A DNA stretch of 64,000 nucleotides, taken from the NCBI RefSeq assembly GCF_940670685.1, contig NZ_OW711693.1:1240001-1304000 (forward strand), given 5' to 3'. Shown here piece after piece: positions 7,586 to 64,000 of this stretch. The DNA comes from Anaeropeptidivorans aminofermentans. Lineage in GTDB: Bacteria; Bacillota; Clostridia; Lachnospirales; UBA5962. The position numbers were made by a program, and so were the translations under genes. Numbering within the stretch: the first letter of the stretch is position 1; the number at the start of each line of letters is the position of its first letter. The notes beneath the pieces were generated by a model. That model was not told the origin of the DNA, ran no database searches, and saw nothing but the letters and a program-made list of their open reading frames with translations.

Positions 7586-7615
7586 GTTTGTGTATTTTAA
7601 TACTGCTTATTGAAA

Positions 7616-7637
7616 TGGGTACTATTTGGGTACTAAA
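7616..7637 (+). repeat. Left arm-type integrase site of element A
   Basis: Two TGGGTACTA units with an 11-bp period, about one helical turn. The 22-bp block is identical, in the same orientation, to 35154-35175 near the other end. The pattern and positions fit arm-binding sites of a tyrosine integrase. Confidence 0.7.
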
Positions 7638-7985
7638 GGTGCTAAGAAATACAATAATACGCAACATATTAGGCAAAATCTAATTCTTGCAATTCTTATT
7701 TGACCTTTATTTATATTAATTGATTTATTATTTATATATGCAGCAGAATATCCTTTTGCTTCTGTTTAATCTCCCCATTCTTAGAATGCTGTGTTAAGCT
7801 AAACCTAAATAAATATTCTATCCCAACATGAGAACTCTCCATAGACAAATGAATATAAGGTTTCTTAAAAGTTTTTGATACCCATAGAAATAATTTTTAA
7901 AATATATGTTATAAATTTTATTATATTCGGAGTGTTATCTGCCGAAGAATAATATGAAAGTTCGATAAATGGGGGTGTACTTTAA

Positions 7986-9944
7986 TTGGCATATAAAGAT
8001 TTTAAAAGTTATTTATACGCAAACTATAAGGAGCTTATACAAATCCATATTGAAGCGTTTATTAACAAAAATTATAATGAATTAGGCCTATCTTATGTTA
8101 GGGAATTCTCATTATGCCCTCGGACAGTAGAAGGCATTGAAATTAAGAGTCTTTGTTGTCATGAAGATGTTGATTCAAGGATTAGAATGGAGATTTATTG
8201 TGATGTAAAGCTTGTAACACTGGGCTTTGAAAAAGTAAAAGTTCAAACAAATAAAATTATCAAGTATTTTACTGTATATGCACAAGCAACTTTATCTAAC
8301 AAACTAGAAGATTTTTGTATCGACAATATTAAAGAATGTAATCCCGATGAATTTGATAAAGTAAGATTTTTAGACGAGTACTTAATCCCCTACATACCTT
8401 ATGAGCAGCTTGAGGATGAAGCTGACCGTTTTTACAAGCTCTATTGCGAAAATGTTCCATATTTCGACCTGTTGAGATTACCAATAGAATCTATTATTGA
8501 GGAGCTAGGCATTGAGTATTATGAAGCTCCTTTACCGAAAAATGTATTTGGTAGAATGTACTTTATCCCATCTAAAGAAGAGGTATATGAATCTATACCA
8601 TATACGATAACTGGTAGGAATGAAAAACGTACTGTAATGAAAGAAATTAAGGCAGGAACTATGCTTATTAGTCATGATAATTACTTTATGAAAGATATAG
8701 GAAGCCGACTAAATACGATTGCGCATGAGATCATCCACTGGGAAAAACACCAAAAATTCTTTAAAATTCTTTCATTGTTAAATGAGAATGAGAATAGTCT
8801 ATCATGTATAGTAGAACCTGTGATGACACCAAATAATCTTGAAGGCATTCAAAAAGCTATTTGGTGGGCAGAATGGCAAGCAAACGCAATAGCACCACGT
8901 ATACTGATGCCAAGAGCTATATTTATAGGTTTATTTAGCCAAGTTTTCGAAGAACAAATGCATACGCCACATTTCCGAAATGGCGACATAATTGAAAAAA
9001 CTCTTGATAAGGTAAGTAAGCTTTTTAGTGTTTCGAAATATGCTGCAAAAACTCGTGCTATTCAACTGGGGATTGATGTTGCAGAAGGCGCTTATACTTT
9101 TGTTGATAACAAGTATTATCCTCCAGTATTTTTTCCTATAGGAACGCTTGGGAGAAATCAGACTTTTATTGTAGACAAGGCGACTGCGCAAAAGTTAATA
9201 GAAGGCAATAGATGTCTAGGAAAATTAGTAGAAAACAAAGCGATTATATATACGGGCAGTGTCTTTTGCATTAATGATTCAAGGTATATTGAGGTATCAG
9301 AAAATTCACAAGAAGAATATAAGTTAACGCAATATGCACTTGAACATGCCGAAAAGTGCTGTTTAATTTTTCAAAGATCATTTAGCAAAGATGTATTTAC
9401 ACAGGAAGCTGAATTATATAGCGTCTTTTACCTTTCGAGGAATGTTACTGCTTCAAGTTATGTTGAGGCATACTATGATTCTAAATTCACTCATAATCAG
9501 GAGGTGGAAGATATAGCGGCTCAGTTATCAATAATAAATAAGGCTCTTGCGGAAGTGAATAAAGTTATAAAAGAGCTTCCCGATAAATTTGAAAGCACAC
9601 TAAAATATCATATGAAAAGAAAGAAAATATCAATTTCTAAGCTTGCAGAAAGAACCGAGTTGAGTGATACAACAATTAAAAATTATACTTCTGGAAGGGT
9701 AAATCCATCTTTAGATAATCTTATGGCCATTTTTATTGGGCTTAATCTTCTAGAGCCATATTGTGATGACATGCTTGATAAGGCTGGGTATAAATTAAAT
9801 AATTTGTATCTACATGAAATATACCGGTATTTAATAAAAAATCATTCCGATGGGAATATAAAGCAGTGGAATGATGTGCTTAAAGCCGCTGACTTTGAAA
9901 AAATTCCTAAAAATAAATTATTAGAGGAACCGTTGGTTCCCTAA
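7986..9944 (+). CDS. ImmA/IrrE-type metallopeptidase with C-terminal XRE HTH
   Basis: 652 residues. The zinc-protease motif HEIIH lies near residues 246-250 in AHEIIHWEKH, with the expected downstream EWQANAIAPRILMP helix near 300. A Cro/C1-type HTH (KLAERTELSDTTIKNYTSGR) sits near 545-565. The first ~170 residues match nothing I recognise. The family (ImmA of ICEBs1, IrrE) cleaves a repressor to derepress mobile genes. Here protease and DNA-binding domain are joined, so it may be repressor and antirepressor in one chain, or a sensor. The start is TTG at 7986 after GGGGGTG (7971-7977). It is the first gene inside element A, and a strong terminator follows at 9949-9988. Confidence 0.75.
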   Translation: MAYKDFKSYLYANYKELIQIHIEAFINKNYNELGLSYVREFSLCPRTVEGIEIKSLCCHEDVDSRIRMEIYCDVKLVTLGFEKVKVQTNKIIKYFTVYAQATLSNKLEDFCIDNIKECNPDEFDKVRFLDEYLIPYIPYEQLEDEADRFYKLYCENVPYFDLLRLPIESIIEELGIEYYEAPLPKNVFGRMYFIPSKEEVYESIPYTITGRNEKRTVMKEIKAGTMLISHDNYFMKDIGSRLNTIAHEIIHWEKHQKFFKILSLLNENENSLSCIVEPVMTPNNLEGIQKAIWWAEWQANAIAPRILMPRAIFIGLFSQVFEEQMHTPHFRNGDIIEKTLDKVSKLFSVSKYAAKTRAIQLGIDVAEGAYTFVDNKYYPPVFFPIGTLGRNQTFIVDKATAQKLIEGNRCLGKLVENKAIIYTGSVFCINDSRYIEVSENSQEEYKLTQYALEHAEKCCLIFQRSFSKDVFTQEAELYSVFYLSRNVTASSYVEAYYDSKFTHNQEVEDIAAQLSIINKALAEVNKVIKELPDKFESTLKYHMKRKKISISKLAERTELSDTTIKNYTSGRVNPSLDNLMAIFIGLNLLEPYCDDMLDKAGYKLNNLYLHEIYRYLIKNHSDGNIKQWNDVLKAADFEKIPKNKLLEEPLVP

Positions 9945-56084: not shown

Positions 56085-57497
56085 ATGCTAAAATTGAAAA
56101 AACTCCTGTACACCTTAATCGTTACTATGGTTACTCTTTGTTCATTTACTTCTTGTAGCAGTGATATAGCCAGTGAATCTTCAAACACTTTTAGTACAGA
56201 AACCGCTGAAGATCAAACTCCAAAAGAAACCGCAGAAAAAAATACTATTGAACCATCTTTTGTCGCTGATGCAATAGAAGAAGATGAAAATGCAAAAAAA
56301 ATTGAAAACTGGACAGTCGATATTACTTACTTTGAAAATCAGATGGCCTCCTATACCCGTAAATTTCTTGATATTGAAAATAGCAAAGAAAATTTAGAAA
56401 TAAGCAAGAAGGTTGATATTGCATTTGACCGTCTTTATGCAGACTTACCAGAACTTGACGATTTTGATATACAGGTTCGCATGCAACAAATTACCGCTCT
56501 ATTTCAAGATGGGCATATGTTCACAGAAATTGCAGTAGGCATGAGCAGCGGTACCAGATTTCCCTTCTCCTTTCAGACTTTTGCGGATGGTGTTTATTGC
56601 ACTGTTGTCTATGACAAGTCCTATGAAAAAGCCCTCAACTGCCGGCTGGACAAAATAAACGGCGTATCTATCGATGAGGTTTTCAACCGATTTTACCGAC
56701 TCTACAGTGGTGACAATCTCTACAACTCAAGATCTCTGTTCGGATCAAAGTTGTATTATCCCATGATCCTTAAGGCTCTTGATTTAATGGAGAACTTGGA
56801 AGCTTCTGTAAACTATACCTTTACAAGCCTTGATGACAATACCTTTGGTATTTACGTGTATAAACAGATTGCTATAGATAAATTACCTGAAGCTATCGAA
56901 AGCAGGTCTGAAGGAGCGGAGGCTTTCTACAACAGTAAAAGCGAACCTATTTGGCTTGATTATCTTGAGGACAAAAAAGCACTGTATCTAAGGTTATATT
57001 ATATTCCTAGTTCAAGTGAAGGCAAAGATTTGGAAGAACGTCTGGCTTCATTTATAGATAAATACTCCGTTGAAAAAATAATCTTAGACCTTAGAGAAAA
57101 CGGCGGCGGTCAGTTTACTGCCTTAAAGAACGGTTGGGTGGAAATGTTGGTATCCTTCGGTTTAAAAACGAAGTGTCTTTATGTGATTACAGACTACAGT
57201 ACATTTTCAATGGCAGGAACTACCGCGATGTATTTAAAAGATGAGGCCGGCGCCACAGTGGTAGGTCTTCCCCCAGGCGGTGGAAAACCTTATATCGGCA
57301 GCGGACAACGAACTAGCCTCAGAAATTCCAACTTTGTAATGTGGATTCCCACATTGAATTCTTATGACAATAATTTAGGTTATAAACCTAAAAGCCTTGT
57401 AAATCACACTTTATACCCAGATATTGAAATAAGCATTAGTATTGAAGATTATATTAACAAGACAGATCCTGTTCTTAATTTGATTCTGTCATTATAG
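56085..57497 (+). CDS. S41-family peptidase-like lipoprotein
   Basis: 470 residues. Signal with lipobox FTSC near residues 22-25, then a Ser/Thr/Glu-rich linker. The S41 N-terminal helical domain ends in FQDGHMFTEI, and the core has ILDLRENGGGQFTALKNG near 335-350 and YSTFSMAGTTAMYLKDE near 368-384, where the catalytic Ser of tail-specific proteases is expected. A conserved Lys for the dyad is not certain. AGGAGG precedes the ATG. It may belong with the downstream peptide locus, which encodes a second S41-like protein. Confidence 0.7.
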   Translation: MLKLKKLLYTLIVTMVTLCSFTSCSSDIASESSNTFSTETAEDQTPKETAEKNTIEPSFVADAIEEDENAKKIENWTVDITYFENQMASYTRKFLDIENSKENLEISKKVDIAFDRLYADLPELDDFDIQVRMQQITALFQDGHMFTEIAVGMSSGTRFPFSFQTFADGVYCTVVYDKSYEKALNCRLDKINGVSIDEVFNRFYRLYSGDNLYNSRSLFGSKLYYPMILKALDLMENLEASVNYTFTSLDDNTFGIYVYKQIAIDKLPEAIESRSEGAEAFYNSKSEPIWLDYLEDKKALYLRLYYIPSSSEGKDLEERLASFIDKYSVEKIILDLRENGGGQFTALKNGWVEMLVSFGLKTKCLYVITDYSTFSMAGTTAMYLKDEAGATVVGLPPGGGKPYIGSGQRTSLRNSNFVMWIPTLNSYDNNLGYKPKSLVNHTLYPDIEISISIEDYINKTDPVLNLILSL

Positions 57498-58303: not shown

Positions 58304-59015
58304 CTATTTTGGAGCTCCAGACTTAACAGTTGGATAATCTGAATATATCTTATGCCCAGTAGATGAAGTATTATTTGCCATAACTTTATAGTAATAAGTT
58401 GTACCCGTTTTTAGCCCTGTATCTGTATAAGATTTAGTTCCGTTAGTGGTAGAATATATTTGGCTGTAAGTACAGTTTTGACTTGTTGCTCTATATAAAA
58501 TATACCCATTAGGTGGGTTAAAGCTATTATAAGACCATGATAAACGTAATGATGTATTGTATTGCTGGAGACAGTTAACGTTGGTGTTTGTAGTAACCGT
58601 ATTGATTTTACAGCTGACTTTGTAGATAGTGACGTTCCTGCTACAGCTTGAATTGAGTAATCGTAAGAAGTACCCAGTGTAGCTGTATCACTATAACTCG
58701 TACTTGTTGTCGTTCCAATCAATTTGGAATCTCTATAAACATTATATTTCAATGCTCCTGCTACACTTCCCCATGTAATGGATACTACTTTTCCTATATT
58801 AACTAAGGATTTAACTTCAGGCATTCTCATATAAGTAGCAGATGCATAGTTTGAATAGTCAGAATAAAATTCATTGCCGCCTCTGTTTGTAACGGTTTTA
58901 ATCTTATAATAATAAGTCGTACCATCTGACTTACTATTATTATCAGTCCATGTCAATGCTGCATACCTTGTATCTATTAAGGAATATCCTCCAGTAGCTC
59001 TTGTAGACCTATATA
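58304..59015 (-). pseudogene. Fibronectin type III-like protein fragment, frameshifted
   Basis: Repeats of GTTYYYKI/GTSYDYSIQAV with YRDSKLIGTTTSTSY and ITWGSVAGALKYNVY are typical Fn3 units of extracellular clostridial proteins. A frameshift near 58560 separates the last unit (NGYILYRATSQNCTYS, TTYYYKVMANN), which ends at 58304-58306. The 5' end stops at about 59015, where the peptide-gene remnant begins. Confidence 0.7.
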
Positions 59016-59028
59016 TTTCTTATTTATC

Positions 59029-59109
59029 TGCATTGGCTGCGGCTCACCTCCAGAGGTTGAATGTGCACCAAACTATGGTGCATGCGGAACAAGAAGTGTA
59101 ACCCGGTAG
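59029..59109 (+). pseudogene. Truncated third precursor peptide gene
   Basis: In frame it reads CIGCGSPPEVECAPNYGACG then TRSVTR and a TAG. This equals the C-terminal part of the peptide at 59366 (GCGSPPEIECAPNYGACG, TRSIHR). The leader half and start are replaced by the neighbouring Fn3 remnant. Confidence 0.8.
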
Positions 59110-59146
59110 CTATGTTATATTATATTATTTGTCAAAGGAGGTTATT

Positions 59147-59332
59147 ATGAGTGAAAGATTCGAGGTAATTGAACTCGATAATAGCATTGAACCTCAGGAT
59201 ATAAACTATTGCCCTAATTTGGTAATTTGTGAATGTAATTTAATTTGTTCGTGTCCTACAGATGGATTTTGTGGGGATGTTGAATGCTCACCAAATTATG
59301 GTGCATGTGGAACAAGAAGCATTTATAGATAA
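59147..59332 (+). CDS. Cys-rich RiPP precursor peptide 1
   Basis: 61 residues with eight Cys (22, 28, 30, 34, 36, 42, 47, 54). The short leader (SERFEVIELDNSIEP) resembles that of peptide 2 (KKGYEVIDINNNAIP). The C-terminus is ECSPNYGACGTRSIYR, matching the other two copies in all but a few positions. ATG 59147 lies 5 nt after AAAGGAGG. It is upstream of an ABC exporter and a YcaO enzyme, so Cys, Ser or Thr residues, or backbone amides, are likely modified. Which residues form the mature product is unknown. Confidence 0.8.
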   Translation: MSERFEVIELDNSIEPQDINYCPNLVICECNLICSCPTDGFCGDVECSPNYGACGTRSIYR

Positions 59333-59365
59333 ATGTTTGTAGATATATATTTGGGAGAGATATAT

Positions 59366-59602
59366 ATGAAAAAAGGATATGAAGTTATAGATATAAATAA
59401 TAATGCCATTCCATTTGGGTCAAATTATACTTGGTGCCCAAATGAATTTATGTGCAACTGTGGAGTTAATGCAGCAGTATGCAGTTGCGGCGATATTGAC
59501 ATTGAATGTGATTGTACGATTGACTGGGGTTGCGGTTCTCCCCCGGAGATTGAATGTGCTCCAAATTATGGTGCTTGCGGAACAAGAAGCATACATAGGT
59601 AA
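59366..59602 (+). CDS. Cys-rich RiPP precursor peptide 2
   Basis: 78 residues with ten Cys (24, 30, 32, 39, 41, 48, 50, 56, 64, 71), many as CxC pairs. Leader MKKGYEVIDINNN, tail GCGSPPEIECAPNYGACG then TRSIHR. ATG 59366 is preceded by GGGAGAG. The tail shared with peptide 1 suggests either a conserved core or a recognition/processing sequence, while the Cys-rich middle varies in length and sequence. It ends 31 bp before a strong hairpin. Confidence 0.82.
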   Translation: MKKGYEVIDINNNAIPFGSNYTWCPNEFMCNCGVNAAVCSCGDIDIECDCTIDWGCGSPPEIECAPNYGACGTRSIHR

Positions 59603-59633
59603 TTATTGTTCAACGTCTGATATTGTTTAGGTG

Positions 59634-59676
59634 GGGCCTGTTAAAGCTACATTCGGAGCCTTGCTTTAACAGGCCC
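59634..59676 (+). terminator. Strong hairpin between precursor and processing genes
   Basis: Perfect 14-bp stem GGGCCTGTTAAAGC (59634-59647)/GCTTTAACAGGCCC (59663-59676). There is no T run, so it is more likely an attenuator or mRNA stabiliser, keeping peptide mRNA more abundant than the downstream enzyme mRNA. Confidence 0.65.
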
Positions 59677-59759
59677 GAATTATATGCAATTAATAATTTT
59701 ATGTACTAACTTAGAATAAATACGAGAATTGTTTATAAGGATTAGGGGGGTCAAATTGA

Positions 59760-60080
59760 AATATAAAGATAGACGCTATCCAAGCAGCTTTTAAAGCACA
59801 AGGAAAAAAGAGCATATATTTTGATTGCTATAAAACATTCCTTAATTCTTTAGATTCAAATAAAAATCAGAATGAGATAGTCGAATATTTGCATGTATTT
59901 TATAGTAAAGAAGTAGTTAGTAAAGTATTGAATGATTATCACGGTGATTCGTTCAAAGACTATTTCGAAATTATATGCACAGAGGAATGTAATAATTGTC
60001 AAAATATGCATTTTTGCAAGAGATTTGTCGAAAAAAAGGTTCTGTATAGTTCAGGAAAAATGATGGCTCTTACAGAATAA
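59760..60080 (+). CDS. Small Cys-motif protein with unresolved start
   Basis: The frame is open from 59760 (after a TGA) to 60080, about 106 codons. It ends with IICTEECNNCQNMHFCKRF, a CxxxCxxCxxxxxC-like cluster that could bind metal. There is no ATG/GTG at a usable place. The good ribosome site AGGGGGG and TTG at 59756 are in another frame that ends after 12 codons. Options: a frameshift just after the start (mutation or programmed), or initiation at TTG 59889 giving 63 residues. Its gene lies between the precursors and the exporter, so a role in peptide maturation or immunity is possible. Confidence 0.55.
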   Translation, partial: NIKIDAIQAAFKAQGKKSIYFDCYKTFLNSLDSNKNQNEIVEYLHVFYSKEVVSKVLNDYHGDSFKDYFEIICTEECNNCQNMHFCKRFVEKKVLYSSGKMMALTE

Positions 60081-60114
60081 ACTATATAATATAATAAAGA
60101 AGTGAATTGGGACT

Positions 60115-61842
60115 ATGAAAAACACTTTTGAAAATAATTTGTACATGCTAAAGTACGTGTGGAAATATTGTAAAAAGTTTGTACTTTTAACGATATTGAT
60201 ATCAGTTCTATCAAGCGTGCAGTCAATATTGGTTCTCTACTTAACTAAATTTTCCATAGAAGTCATAATTAATCAGGATTTGTTTGAATATTTTATGATG
60301 TATCTGGCGCTTAACTTTTTTATTCATATAGGGCTTTCATTAATTAACAATTATTATCAATATAGTTTGTTACCAAAAAATAATTTGCATTTCATGAAGG
60401 TTATGAGGGAAGAACTATTCCATAAATCGAGGCAGGTTGAGATATCAAAATTTGATGACACCGAATTTTATGATAATTATACTCTCGCCATGAATAATTC
60501 CGATACAAGGGCAATTAATGTATTAAATACGTTTATCAGCTTAATTAATAATATTATAAAAATTATTTCAACCATAGCTGTTATTGTTTATGTGGATTGG
60601 ATTATAATTATAGCTGTTTCTATTAATGTAATGCTCAACTTTATTATAAATTTCAGGCTTTCCAGACTGTCATACTATATTAATTTAGAATCAGTTAAGT
60701 CCAACCGAATTATATCCTATATATCACGTGTTTATTATCTTAAATCTTATGCCAAGGAATTGCGTACAAGCAATGTAAATAAATCATTAAAGCATCATTT
60801 TGACAGTGCAGTAGTTCATGCTGAAAAAATCATAAAGAAATATAGTGGCAAGCAAATATCTAACTTGACTCTACAGAATATCTTCCAGATAATTGCGCAA
60901 TTTGCTATTCAGATACATTTGATATTAAGGGCAGTTAGCAATAAGATTACAATTGGTGATTTTGCAATGATATTAAATGCATCTAATCAGCTGAGCGGAT
61001 CAATTTTAAACTTTTTAAATACATTTCCAAAGCTCTACGAAAACAGTTTATATATAGAAAAATTCCGGAATTTTGTTGAATATTCCTCGGGTAATGATAG
61101 ACGAGTGGAGCTATACGAAATAAATTCTATTGATTCTATAGAATTCAGAAATGTTAGATATATATATAACAACGATAAATTAGAACATGTTTTAGATAGT
61201 ATTAACCTTAAAATTTTTAAAGGAGAGAAAATAGCAATACTTGGACTTAATGGCTCCGGTAAATCCACTTTTGTAAAATTACTGCTGGGATTGTATAGCC
61301 CGAGCGAAGGCGAGGTATTTTTAAATGGTCAAAACTATAATTTATATGACAGCAATGTATTTTTAGGGAATATAGGTGTAGTATTCCAGGATTTTGAGTT
61401 TTTTGCGATTCCAATTATTGAAAATATTTTAATGCGCCCAGTAATTGATAAGGAAAATGATGAGAAGCTGGTAAAAAGTGCATTAGTTAAGGTTGGTATG
61501 TATGAAAAAATATGCTCATTGCCTGAGGGAGTATATACAAACATAAGTAAGGAACTAGATTCATCAGGAACAACGTTTTCGGGAGGCGAATTTCAGCGGT
61601 TGGCTATATCGAGAATCCTCACTAAACATTATCAATTTATAGTACTTGATGAACCTACGAGTAATCTGGATATTATTGGTGAACGAAAAATAATGAATTT
61701 GGTTTTTAACGAATATAAAGATGAGGCTGTGATTGTTATATCCCACAAAATACAATATTTGTCCCAATTCGACCATGTTTATGTATTTGACAAAGGAAAT
61801 ATCGAAGAATATGACAGAAAGCTTGAATTAGTTGAAAATTAA
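60115..61842 (+). CDS. ABC transporter, fused permease and ATPase (peptide exporter type)
   Basis: 575 residues. N-terminal six-helix ABC membrane domain (hydrophobic segments near 20-40, 60-80, 135-180 and 250-285). ATPase: Walker A GLNGSGKST near 376-384, signature FSGGEFQRLAISR near 487-499, Walker B FIVLDEPTSNLD near 508-519. No C39 leader-peptidase domain is present at the N-terminus, so leader removal must be done by another protein, perhaps the S41-like peptidase downstream. Likely exports the modified peptide. Confidence 0.88.
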   Translation: MKNTFENNLYMLKYVWKYCKKFVLLTILISVLSSVQSILVLYLTKFSIEVIINQDLFEYFMMYLALNFFIHIGLSLINNYYQYSLLPKNNLHFMKVMREELFHKSRQVEISKFDDTEFYDNYTLAMNNSDTRAINVLNTFISLINNIIKIISTIAVIVYVDWIIIIAVSINVMLNFIINFRLSRLSYYINLESVKSNRIISYISRVYYLKSYAKELRTSNVNKSLKHHFDSAVVHAEKIIKKYSGKQISNLTLQNIFQIIAQFAIQIHLILRAVSNKITIGDFAMILNASNQLSGSILNFLNTFPKLYENSLYIEKFRNFVEYSSGNDRRVELYEINSIDSIEFRNVRYIYNNDKLEHVLDSINLKIFKGEKIAILGLNGSGKSTFVKLLLGLYSPSEGEVFLNGQNYNLYDSNVFLGNIGVVFQDFEFFAIPIIENILMRPVIDKENDEKLVKSALVKVGMYEKICSLPEGVYTNISKELDSSGTTFSGGEFQRLAISRILTKHYQFIVLDEPTSNLDIIGERKIMNLVFNEYKDEAVIVISHKIQYLSQFDHVYVFDKGNIEEYDRKLELVEN

Positions 61843-61884
61843 ATCCAAATAAATTAATCTTAGTTATAAAATCAGGAGATTTTT

Positions 61885-63588
61885 ATGAATAACCAATATA
61901 AAGATAGAGATCCATATTCCACTATTAAATTAGCTAATTTATTTTTTCTTGAAAGAGAAATTTTGATTACGGAACAGTGGCATGATAATGCAGATATTAA
62001 TTTATATTCTGTGAGTATTGGTGTTGGAAATATCAGCACTAATGGAAAAGGAGTTAGCAAATTATACGCCTTAGCCAGTGCTTATGGTGAATTGATGGAA
62101 AGGGTGCAAAATAAGGCGTTCTTTTATATAAACTCGAATATTGAGAATATGTATGGCGAAGAATTAATAAGCGATTATTGCGTGCACAGCTATTTGGAAT
62201 GGTATAAGATAGTTTCCAAGGAATATATAAATATTTTTTCACAATCACTGTTTGAAAAATTTCTGCTTTCAATGCCATCTGAACAGAAAACCAAAGTATT
62301 CACGTCTTTAGATGGAAAAAGCACTGTAGCACTACCCAATAATTTATTGAGCATTATTTATGGTAGTAACGGTATGGTGGCAGGTAATTCCGAGACGGAA
62401 GCTTATGTTCAGGGATTATCAGAAATTTTGGAACGATATGTGGCAAAAATATATATTGAAGAAAAACAAAAACCTATATATATTAATCCTGAAAGCTTGA
62501 ACTTTCTTGAAAACTTCAGTTTTATTGTTGACATTATTAATAAGATTGAGTCTACAGACTATTTCAGTGTAAAGATTTTGGATTTATCTATGGGTACCGA
62601 TATACCAGCTATCGGCATAATATTAATTAATAAGAGAGATGCCTCTTATTTTGTTAAAATTGGGGTGCATCCAATAATGGAAATTGCAATTGAAAGGTGC
62701 TTTACGGAGATGTTCCAAGGTAGAAGTCTAATTAAATATTCTAAATATATGACGGGTGCTTCTCATAATAAAAATATATTTGAATCCCGTTTGAATTACC
62801 ACAATTTTTATGTAGATGGAAGAGCTGCATTTCCGATTGAATTTTTTTGGGGTAAAGAGATTGACTATGATATGAAAAAATATAATAAATTTAAAAGTAA
62901 TAAAGATATGAAAAAATTTTTGGTCGATTTAATATATGCTTTAGGTTATGAAATTTTTGTTATAAACAATACAGTTTCCGATATATATGCATTTCACTTT
63001 TTAGTGCCTGGTATAAGCGAGGTAGCGCCAATGGATGAAAAAACGCTACTTAATTATTTAGAAGATTTAAACCCTATAGAGTTATTAAATACAAAACTTT
63101 TACATTTGGAGAAAGGCGATGTGCAGATAATTGTTGATTATATTGACAATGGAATTGACAAAAACATGCCCCTTGATACGCTGATATATTCACATAATTT
63201 TTTGAGTTCAAGTGAAGCAAAAAAATTCTATGTATTGGATTTATATATTTCTTTGAATATTAAGTTGGAAAGATATGATGTTATAGTAAATACTATTAGA
63301 GATAGCAAACTATTAATTGAGAATAATAAAACGCATTATAACTTCTATTATTGCCTTAAATTATACTGCCAGCTAAAAATCTATGGGTATCAGTATAACT
63401 ATATCAGTGCCGTTTTATCTAATTTTTATAAAAGTGAAACTCTAAACAATTTAAATAAATATATAGACAATCCGCTTTGCTTTTTTAATATTGAAACATG
63501 TCTGGATAATTGTTTCTCATGTAAAAAAATAAGCACTGAAGGTCATTGTCAATATAAACTTAAAAAGGAATTGTATTTAATCGTTTGA
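61885..63588 (+). CDS. YcaO-family enzyme, full-length E. coli YcaO type
   Basis: 567 residues. ATP-site motifs are in order: SAYGELMER (65-73), SNGMVAGNS (161-169), EAYVQGLSEILERYV (172-186) and AIERCFTEMFQGR (268-280), then VPGISEVAP near 375. These align along their whole length with E. coli YcaO (about 586 residues) as I remember it, including the helical C-terminal half. The final 40 residues add a Cys-rich tail (CFFNIETCLDNCFSC ... HC). YcaO enzymes activate peptide backbone amides with ATP, yielding azolines, thioamides or amidines. No E1-like partner gene is in the window. Confidence 0.9.
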   Translation: MNNQYKDRDPYSTIKLANLFFLEREILITEQWHDNADINLYSVSIGVGNISTNGKGVSKLYALASAYGELMERVQNKAFFYINSNIENMYGEELISDYCVHSYLEWYKIVSKEYINIFSQSLFEKFLLSMPSEQKTKVFTSLDGKSTVALPNNLLSIIYGSNGMVAGNSETEAYVQGLSEILERYVAKIYIEEKQKPIYINPESLNFLENFSFIVDIINKIESTDYFSVKILDLSMGTDIPAIGIILINKRDASYFVKIGVHPIMEIAIERCFTEMFQGRSLIKYSKYMTGASHNKNIFESRLNYHNFYVDGRAAFPIEFFWGKEIDYDMKKYNKFKSNKDMKKFLVDLIYALGYEIFVINNTVSDIYAFHFLVPGISEVAPMDEKTLLNYLEDLNPIELLNTKLLHLEKGDVQIIVDYIDNGIDKNMPLDTLIYSHNFLSSSEAKKFYVLDLYISLNIKLERYDVIVNTIRDSKLLIENNKTHYNFYYCLKLYCQLKIYGYQYNYISAVLSNFYKSETLNNLNKYIDNPLCFFNIETCLDNCFSCKKISTEGHCQYKLKKELYLIV

Positions 63589-63604
63589 GATAGAAGGAAT
63601 AATT

Positions 63605-64000
63605 ATGAAAAATATTAAAAGTAAATTAAATCGCAAGAATATTATTTTTGCCATATTTGTTATACTCATTATAAAATTTGTTTTTGGTGAAATTCTATCG
63701 CTATATAAATATTATACAGCCCCGTCATTTATAAAGGAATTCAGTGTAGAGGATGCATTGCATGATTATGATTATATGTGGAAAAGGTTGGAAGAAAATT
63801 ATCCATATTTTCAGGTTGCAGAGAGGGTTCTTCAACTTGATATAAATGAAATAAAATTAAGCTATAGAAACAAAATTGCTGAAAAGAGCAGTATTTCCTT
63901 TGATGAATTTTACGATATTATATTTAATTGTTCAAGAGAATTCAAAGAAGTAGGCCACTTTACAGTGCTGCCTTCTGGAAGCTATAAAATGCTTAAAAAC
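63605..64000 (+). CDS. S41 peptidase-like protein, N-terminal part (runs off window)
   Basis: 132 residues are visible. A membrane anchor (IIFAIFVILIIKFVFGEIL) is followed by VEDALHDYDYMWKRLEENYPYF and a region ending FDEFYDIIFNCSREFKEVGHFTVLPS, the pattern of the N-terminal helical domain of S41 tail-specific peptidases (compare 56085). The catalytic domain lies beyond 64000. AAGGA precedes ATG 63605. It could be the leader peptidase of the locus. Confidence 0.6.
   Translation, partial: MKNIKSKLNRKNIIFAIFVILIIKFVFGEILSLYKYYTAPSFIKEFSVEDALHDYDYMWKRLEENYPYFQVAERVLQLDINEIKLSYRNKIAEKSSISFDEFYDIIFNCSREFKEVGHFTVLPSGSYKMLKN

What the first reader, a model, noticed from the sequence alone, without database searches (positions are those of the whole stretch)
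59029..64000. Candidate new RiPP locus: Cys-rich precursors + ABC exporter + YcaO + S41-like peptidase
Seen: two intact short Cys-rich peptides with similar leaders and near-identical tails (EC[S/A]PNYGACGTRSI), a small Cys-motif protein, an exporter without a leader-peptidase domain, a YcaO enzyme and an S41-like protein, all on one strand with short gaps. Known: YcaO enzymes next to short peptides usually modify peptide backbones. Inference: the locus makes a modified peptide. I do not recognise this precursor family among known thiopeptides, TOMMs, thioamitides or bottromycins.
Basis: partly seen in the sequence, partly recalled or inferred. Interest (0 to 1): 0.85.

Follow-up and report, generated by a model that had tools for sequence, protein, structure and literature searches.

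The report
Peptide locus with ribosome-type YcaO enzyme
A Clostridia genome carries a small gene cassette that probably makes and exports a chemically modified, cysteine-rich peptide, using a lone enzyme related to the E. coli enzyme that swaps an oxygen for sulphur in a ribosomal protein; the peptides were found in no other species searched.

Summary
Two intact Cys-rich peptide genes (61 and 78 aa), an ABC exporter without a C39 domain, a 567-aa YcaO and an S41 peptidase lie on one strand. Two points change. The "small Cys-motif protein" is the C-terminal remnant of a second, decayed YcaO, and a third precursor survives only as a tail. The YcaO is not a SagD-type cyclodehydratase: by profile, tree and predicted fold (Z 40.8, nearly full length) it belongs with E. 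coli YcaO, long called an S12 accessory factor but shown in 2026 to thioamidate ribosomal protein uL16. It is the only YcaO found in the genome, and searches for TfuA, PqqD and one E1-like partner family (TIGR03882) found nothing. Of 22 other such loci (Clostridia, Bacilli, one proteobacterium), 10 by my reading also have short, quite different peptides with export, protease or radical SAM genes. Best reading: a RiPP locus in which a ribosome-type YcaO thioamidates a Cys-rich peptide that is exported and then trimmed. The thioamide is inferred, not shown; azoline or amidine remain possible. The precursor family was found credibly only here. The enzyme group's RiPP link is mentioned in one sentence in print.

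The parts
58993..59109 (+). Third precursor copy, tail remnant only (no start, divergent upstream part)
   Evidence: Profile of PreA/PreB matches 58993-59106 at E 5e-8, model positions 38-78 of 78; translation to the stop
59147..59332 (+). PreA, 61-aa Cys-rich precursor peptide (8 Cys)
   Evidence: AGGAGG-type ribosome-binding site and ATG; similar to PreB far beyond shuffles
59366..59602 (+). PreB, 78-aa Cys-rich precursor peptide (10 Cys)
59756..59794 (+). N-terminal remnant of a second YcaO (12 codons and a stop; YKDR motif as in YcaO N-termini, consensus)
   Evidence: Three-frame translation; too short for a test of its own
59760..60080 (+).
   Evidence: 26.7 bits to the YcaO profile, positions 498-580 of 596; maximum of 2000 shuffles 9.0 bits
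60115..61842 (+). ABC exporter, 575 aa, permease plus ATPase, no C39 peptidase domain
   Evidence: PF00005 9.2e-28 and no PF03412 at E up to 1; full-length similarity to MsbA-type exporters
61885..63588 (+). YcaO, 567 aa, E. coli YcaO type, ATP-site residues kept
   Evidence: PF02624 4.2e-39; NF040716 208.7 bits; active-site columns; fold Z 40.8 to 4q86
63605..64000 (+). S41-family peptidase with a hydrophobic N-terminal segment (by eye); first 132 aa in the window, gene continues to L002:8867 (420 aa)
   Evidence: PF03572 1.8e-19 on the full protein; ORF

Best explanation
This is a compact RiPP locus. PreA and PreB are the substrates. The YcaO, an enzyme of the E. coli YcaO type acting without a known partner, activates backbone amides with ATP and most likely replaces oxygen by sulphur (thioamide) at one or a few positions. 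The ABC exporter carries the modified peptide out with its leader still on, as it has no leader peptidase. The S41 peptidase, probably membrane-anchored, then trims it outside the cell. Shown by sequence: the genes and their order, the kept ATP site, the enzyme's family, the absence of TfuA, PqqD and TIGR03882 matches in the genome, and the duplications and decay in the locus. Inferred: that the peptides are the substrates, the thioamide chemistry, the order of steps and the role of S41.
For: NF040716 (E. coli YcaO) 208.7 bits, against 144 for the OsmC/YcaO model, 117 for the general YcaO domain, 47 for the SagD type and 44 for the methanogen thioamidation model. The two PDB sequence matches are E. 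coli YcaO (5e-32) and M. jannaschii MJ1094 (7e-8); E. coli YcaO is a demonstrated thioamide former (PMC13063428). Predicted fold matches E. coli YcaO over 538 residues at Z 40.8, other YcaOs at 26.3 or less. Of 15 active-site-region columns looked at, 12 equal E. coli, among them K9, S71, E75, E78, N187, E191, E199, R203, R286, E290 (site list recalled). It is the only YcaO match in the genome; TfuA, TIGR03882 and PqqD gave none. The PxPxP motif of azoline-forming YcaOs (PMC12670281, passages) is absent. pI 5.56 against 4.44 for E. coli YcaO, in line with the not highly acidic RiPP-context members mentioned in PMC13063428. 10 of 22 other loci have short peptides plus maturation or export genes. 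Precursor and YcaO remnants both lie in this locus.
Against: No product or activity is known and the sulphur source is unknown. The precursors are Cys-rich, which would also suit azolines. The precursor family was found in this genome only, so no independent co-occurrence can be shown. Full-length YcaO relatives are at most 32% identical, and its place in the tree is unsure (long branch). 8 of 22 other loci show no RiPP-like setting, and no control set of unrelated genes was tallied. pI does not separate the groups here: several relatives without a RiPP-like setting are also not acidic (L019 5.58, L020 6.03, L053 5.97, L025 6.10, L022 6.33). In the columns, position 16 is Thr for Ser, 184 Val for Ser and 129 a gap. 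An S41 gene was not noticed beside the other YcaOs. Decayed copies and transposase pieces show an unstable locus.
Confidence: 0.5

Rival explanations
1. RiPP locus, but the YcaO makes azolines (or azoles) at the many Cys residues instead of a thioamide.
For: 8 and 10 Cys in the precursors; single YcaOs of the bottromycin type can act without an E1-like partner (recalled).
Against: Low match to the SagD-type model; no TIGR03882 partner in the genome (other partner models not searched genome-wide); no PxPxP motif (no positive control in that script); no oxidase among the locus proteins scanned; relatives of this enzyme sit beside Ala/Gly peptides without Cys (L051, L052).
Confidence: 0.16
2. RiPP locus in which the YcaO makes a backbone amidine with an amine as nucleophile.
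For: A YcaO (ItfB) from a radical SAM and YcaO cluster forms a backbone amidine (PMC10352776, passages); amines are established YcaO nucleophiles (PMC12670281, passages).
Against: No sequence comparison with ItfB was made; the closest solved relatives include the thioamide-forming E. coli YcaO.
Confidence: 0.12
3. The YcaO is a housekeeping ribosome-modifying enzyme that happens to lie near Cys-rich, possibly metal-binding, exported peptides.
For: The enzyme family is that of uL16-modifying YcaO; the precursors were never seen with a YcaO elsewhere.
Against: Rare: 9 of 391 genomes of the class sample and 14 of 392 of the order sample had any match, own included; long branch; pI 5.56 (see limits above); gaps of 42 and 16 bases between exporter, YcaO and S41; a second YcaO decayed in the same locus.
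Confidence: 0.12
4. A decaying locus: remnants of a former RiPP cluster with no present function.
For: Truncated precursor and YcaO copies; transposase pieces downstream.
Against: Both precursors, exporter, YcaO and S41 are open and the active site is kept. A second assembly (L005) keeps them with 2 differences in 5950 bases, but it is so near that it is hardly independent.
Confidence: 0.08

Closest known systems
E. coli YcaO (EcYcaO), uL16 Met82 thioamide synthetase (PMC13063428; PDB 4q84-4q86)
   Same: Fold and domain order over nearly the full length, ATP site, no TfuA in the genome
   Different: About 28% identity over the core; here beside precursor peptides and an exporter; pI 5.56 against 4.44; a Cys-rich C-terminus
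Not highly acidic EcYcaO-group enzymes in RiPP contexts, mentioned in one sentence of PMC13063428 (Fig. S33, not seen)
   Same: EcYcaO group, not highly acidic, RiPP-like setting
   Different: Whether this locus is among them could not be checked (supplement not held)
YcaO-TfuA thioamidated RiPPs (PMC8120280, start of abstract seen in a listing)
   Same: YcaO plus short peptides, expected thioamide
   Different: No TfuA match in the genome; YcaO of another branch
TOMM / linear azol(in)e peptides
   Same: YcaO and Cys-containing precursors
   Different: No TIGR03882 match in the genome, low SagD score, no PxPxP motif, no oxidase among the locus proteins scanned
L047/L048 loci found here (G843, G931): 40-aa peptides with a CxCxC block, radical SAM-SPASM, YcaO, ABC exporter
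   Same: EcYcaO-type YcaO with short Cys-containing peptides and an ABC exporter; for L047 no C39 match
   Different: Have a radical SAM enzyme; precursors without evident sequence relation

Membership tests
EcYcaO-type YcaO (NF040716) | Full-length profile match above the equivalog cut-off | tested here: not met
   Best NCBIfam match, residues 12-542, 208.7 bits, cut-off 700: homologous, not the same equivalog
EcYcaO-type YcaO (wider group) | EcYcaO fold, including the C-terminal helical domain | tested here: met
   Z 40.8, rmsd 4.2, 538 residues to 4q86; next families Z 26.3 or less over about 290-340 residues; model pLDDT 74
EcYcaO-type YcaO (wider group) | Groups with EcYcaO apart from more distant YcaOs in a tree | tested here: met
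   24 rows including E. coli against 4 more distant YcaOs of undetermined type, support 100/99; own position inside uncertain, the tool warns of long branches
uL16-thioamidating YcaO | Strongly acidic enzyme (E. coli pI 4.4) | tested here: not met
   pI 5.56; the criterion is a correlation in PMC13063428 and does not separate the relatives read here
uL16-thioamidating YcaO | Thioamide on uL16 in the host | not testable with these tools
   Needs mass spectrometry
TOMM / LAP cyclodehydratase | E1-like or ocin-ThiF partner protein | tested here: not met
   No such match among the 7 locus-region proteins scanned; no TIGR03882 match in the genome; other partner models were not searched genome-wide
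TOMM / LAP cyclodehydratase | SagD-type YcaO (TIGR03604 above cut-off) | tested here: not met
   47 bits, cut-off 219
TOMM / LAP cyclodehydratase | PxPxP motif (PMC12670281, passages) | tested here: not met
   Absent from the window's YcaO and from the other 24 rows
YcaO-TfuA thioamidated RiPP | TfuA gene next to the YcaO | tested here: not met
   No PF07812 match in the whole genome
RiPP locus in the wide sense | Short duplicated precursor genes beside a peptide-modifying enzyme | tested here: met
RiPP locus in the wide sense | Precursor is modified by the enzyme | not testable with these tools
   No experiment possible
RRE-dependent RiPP | RiPP recognition element | tested here: inconclusive
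   No PF05402 (PqqD) match in the genome; divergent RREs were not tested

The most novel reading that the evidence does not exclude
Relatives of the ribosome-modifying E. coli YcaO have been recruited in Clostridia and Bacilli, perhaps many times, as self-sufficient thioamide synthetases for very different exported peptides (Cys-rich, Ala/Gly-rich, Nif11-like). Many of them carry a C-terminal four-Cys motif (about C-x2-4-C-x2-C-x5-8-C) that binds a metal or iron-sulphur centre, or carries a persulphide, and supplies the sulphur that other thioamide YcaOs obtain through TfuA. The locus here would be one product line of this class.
Probability: 0.15. Interest if true: 0.82.

Novelty: new variant of a known kind. 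Interest (0 to 1): 0.6.

Why it matters
Searches for YcaO peptides usually lean on partner genes (recalled), and E. coli-type YcaOs are named as ribosomal accessory factors (NCBIfam NF040716), so loci like this one can be missed. If the YcaO acts on the peptides, the E. coli-type enzyme is not restricted to a ribosomal protein. Clostridia and Bacilli would then hold a set of natural substrates with which to ask how such a YcaO chooses its amide and where its sulphur comes from, a question left open in PMC13063428.

Tried and rejected
Housekeeping reading: not the main one because the YcaO is rare, diverged and embedded in the cassette, but kept as a rival. Small Cys-motif protein as a new component: rejected; its sub-threshold Pfam matches are taken as chance. 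Upstream S41 lipoprotein at 56085-57497 as a partner: local similarity only, E 4e-4 for a single comparison, about 1.5 kb away, so not counted. Precursor relatives: none in plasmids or phages at E up to 1; in viral contigs 2 pattern matches, none confirmed. In 392 genomes of the order: the own genome (3 places) and one match at E 0.009 amid unrelated genes, taken as chance. In 8 further YcaO-bearing genomes: one match at E 0.003 in a stretch of translation genes, taken as chance. No PHROGs match. YcaO in viral contigs: none confirmed. Two YcaO matches were left out of the comparison: G973 (stops inside) and G1108 (156-aa frame, E 5e-4). Phylum sample with NF040716: 5 of 398 genomes, own at 207 bits, the other four at 41 bits or less; these four served as outgroup. 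Two further YcaOs (L065, L067) were not placed in the tree: the script found no match for them; a more sensitive one found 43.8 bits for L065 and nothing clear for L067. The C-terminal Cys motif could not be judged in the model: residues 534-554 have pLDDT under 50. A guess that one L054 gene is a subtilase (used as a row label) was not borne out by Pfam. RREs beyond PqqD were not tested.

Tally of the 23 loci, own included, by my reading of ORF lists (ORF listing for L006-L008, my own simple ORF caller for the others; not every gene was scanned against families): peptide plus maturation or export genes 11 (own, L006, L023, L027, L047, L048, L049, L050, L051, L052, L055); peptide only 1 (L008); radical SAM plus ABC without a clear peptide 2 (L026, L054); 31-aa ORF plus asparagine synthase 1 (L046); none 8 (L007, L019, L020, L021, L022, L024, L025, L053; L022 has two ABC-type genes by eye). 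In L006 the C39 exporter is on the other strand. Family labels rest on scans for L006, L023, L026, L027, L046, L047, L048, L049 (M50 below cut-off), L051, L052 and L054; L050 and L055 are labelled by resemblance to L023.

Full report
WHAT IS THERE. The window is part of a single-contig 3.76-Mb genome. A very near copy of the locus is in an assembly titled Clostridiales bacterium UBA11329 (L005), with 2 differences in 5950 bases. On the + strand lie, in order: a precursor tail remnant (58993-59109), PreA (59147-59332), PreB (59366-59602), remnants of a YcaO (59756-60080), an ABC exporter (60115-61842), an intact YcaO (61885-63588) and an S41 peptidase (63605 onwards, complete in L002 as 7605-8867). 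Transposase pieces follow.

THE PEPTIDES. PreA and PreB share a leader-like start ([FY]EVI[ED][LI][DN]N), a variable Cys-rich middle and a near-identical tail (EC[SA]PNYGACGTRSI). Their alignment score is 154, against a maximum of 72 in 2000 shuffles. In the 16-codon tail they have 9 identical codons, 5 synonymous and 2 non-synonymous differences. The remnant copy matches the two-row profile at E 5e-8. Three of 262 small ORFs of the window reach 11% Cys, and only PreA and PreB also have a ribosome-binding site. Because both ends are conserved and the middle varies, it is not clear which part is core and which is recognition sequence.

THE 'SMALL CYS-MOTIF PROTEIN'. Its frame is open from 59760. 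The stretch from 59763 matches the last part of the YcaO family (26.7 bits, positions 498-580 of 596), against at most 9.0 bits for 2000 shuffles. The profile was built from 25 YcaO rows, among them the window's own YcaO, but not the remnant. A TTG-started 12-residue piece with the YKDR sequence of YcaO N-termini (consensus) lies just before it in another frame. It is therefore most likely a decayed second YcaO, not a part of the pathway.

THE YcaO. Pfam YcaO 4.2e-39. Among NCBIfam models NF040716 (E. coli YcaO) gives 208.7 bits (cut-off 700), the OsmC/YcaO model 144, the general YcaO domain 117, the SagD type 47 and the McrA-thioamidation model 44. Sequence search of the PDB at E up to 0.01 gives E. 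coli YcaO (5e-32) and M. jannaschii MJ1094 (7e-8) only. An AlphaFold2 model from 23 related sequences (pLDDT 74, pTM 0.72) matches E. coli YcaO at Z 40.8 over 538 residues; the YcaOs of two methanogens, two cyanobactin-type heterocyclases, the YcaO peptidase 7u58 and microcin McbD follow at Z 26.3 to 18.5 over the core only (Foldseek agrees). Of 15 active-site-region columns looked at (numbers recalled), 12 equal E. coli; position 16 is Thr for Ser, 184 Val for Ser, 129 a gap. The PxPxP motif of azoline-forming YcaOs (PMC12670281, passages) is absent from all 25 rows (no positive control). In a tree, 24 EcYcaO-like rows separate from 4 more distant YcaOs with support 100/99; the window's protein is a long branch without a well-supported sister. 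Its pI is 5.56, that of E. coli YcaO 4.44 (the E. coli frame used starts 11 residues early). The genome has one YcaO match and none to TfuA, TIGR03882 or PqqD.

WHY THIS MATTERS FOR FUNCTION. Of PMC13063428 I saw the abstract and outline, the sections on the AlphaFold3 scan and on distribution and the discussion, and passages. It shows that E. coli YcaO thioamidates uL16 at Met82, in vitro with added sulphide, and that E. coli has no TfuA homologue. It says that most members of the EcYcaO group are acidic and that for a few not highly acidic ones the genomic context 'strongly suggests' RiPP biosynthesis. Its supplement was not seen. The paper leaves the sulphur source open. In my set, pI does not separate RiPP-like from other settings.

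RELATIVES. YcaO relatives were found in 2 of 57, 9 of 391 and 14 of 392 genomes, own included each time and samples overlapping; one search gave four loci, one of them the near copy L005. I read the surroundings of 23 loci, own included; two weak or broken matches were left out. Besides the own locus, 10 of 22 have, by my reading, short peptides next to the YcaO together with maturation or export genes. These are: GG-ending leader peptides (L023: Nif11-leader model 22.8 bits, under its cut-off of 32.3) with radical SAM and B12-radical SAM enzymes and a C39 exporter (L023; L050 and L055 by resemblance); CxCxC peptides with a radical SAM-SPASM enzyme (L047, L048) and an ABC exporter (scanned in L047); Ala/Gly-rich peptides with an M50-type protease (L051, L052; weak in L049), whose best NCBIfam match in L052 is the daptide metalloprotease model, below its cut-off; a short peptide with PqqD and a radical SAM enzyme (L027); and basic peptides with a C39 exporter on the other strand (L006). 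Eight show no such setting; three of these have a YlbF-family gene just before the YcaO (L019, L020, L053; PF06133). No control set of unrelated genes was tallied.

C-TERMINAL CYS MOTIF. 12 of 25 rows carry C-x2-4-C-x2-C-x4-7-C near the C-terminus, and L026 and L054 a three-Cys form. The window's own YcaO does not match that pattern; it has a wider form (C-x3-C-x2-C-x8-C, by eye), and the remnant fits the common form (by eye). E. coli YcaO and L006, L008, L023, L049, L050, L051, L052, L055 lack it. The region is of low confidence in the model. A metal, Fe-S or persulphide role is speculation.

MECHANISM. Most likely the YcaO activates a backbone amide of PreA/PreB with ATP and sulphide attacks, giving a thioamide; the exporter, lacking C39, exports the peptide with its leader; and the S41 enzyme, with one hydrophobic N-terminal segment (by eye), trims it outside. 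The chemistry rests on family kinship, the missing TfuA and E1-like matches and the missing PxPxP motif. Azolines from a lone YcaO or an amidine (PMC10352776 and PMC12670281, passages) are not excluded. A review of leader proteases (PMC10885120, passages) does not hold the whole word S41 in its main text, so the role of S41 is my inference.

WHAT IS IN PRINT. In the listings shown by searches (30 of 73 papers; 2 of 2; 8 of 8; 12 of 20; 4 of 5; 15 of 21) no title or abstract start described these precursors or this gene set. The library holds open-licence PMC papers only. Of PMC10352776, PMC10885120, PMC13289728 and PMC12670281 I saw passages; of the others, listings.

VERDICT. A real and probably active RiPP-type locus built on an E. 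coli-type YcaO: a new variant of a known kind.

Noticed in passing
L049:5566-6082 (-); L051:7200-7391 (-); L052:9717-9908 (+): Ala/Gly-rich short peptides (three copies in L049) beside an EcYcaO-type YcaO and an M50-type protease (best NCBIfam match of the L052 protease: daptide metalloprotease model, below cut-off); a possible second peptide family of the same enzyme type.
   Followed up: partly
L047:5565-6125 (+) and L048:10543-10665 (-): 40-aa peptides with a CxCxC block and a Ser/Gly stretch, followed by radical SAM-SPASM, YcaO and ABC exporter genes.
   Followed up: partly
L023, L050, L055: GG-ending, Nif11-like leader peptides with several radical SAM enzymes (one with a B12 domain), a diphthamide-synthase-family protein, an EcYcaO-type YcaO and a C39 exporter (scanned in L023 only).
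   Followed up: partly
L020:7553-7870, L019:4925-5437, L053:10145-10609: Met-rich proteins next to or near YcaO genes that are preceded by a YlbF-family gene; E. coli YcaO thioamidates a Met residue, so these could be substrates.
   Followed up: no
L046:5851-9727: A 31-aa ORF with a strong ribosome-binding site, an asparagine synthase and a YcaO in a row.
   Followed up: no
window 56085-57497 (+): A second S41-like lipoprotein about 1.5 kb upstream of the locus.
   Followed up: partly
L002:9060-11479 (just beyond the window): Two sets of transposase pieces directly downstream of the S41 gene (IS type not determined).
   Followed up: no
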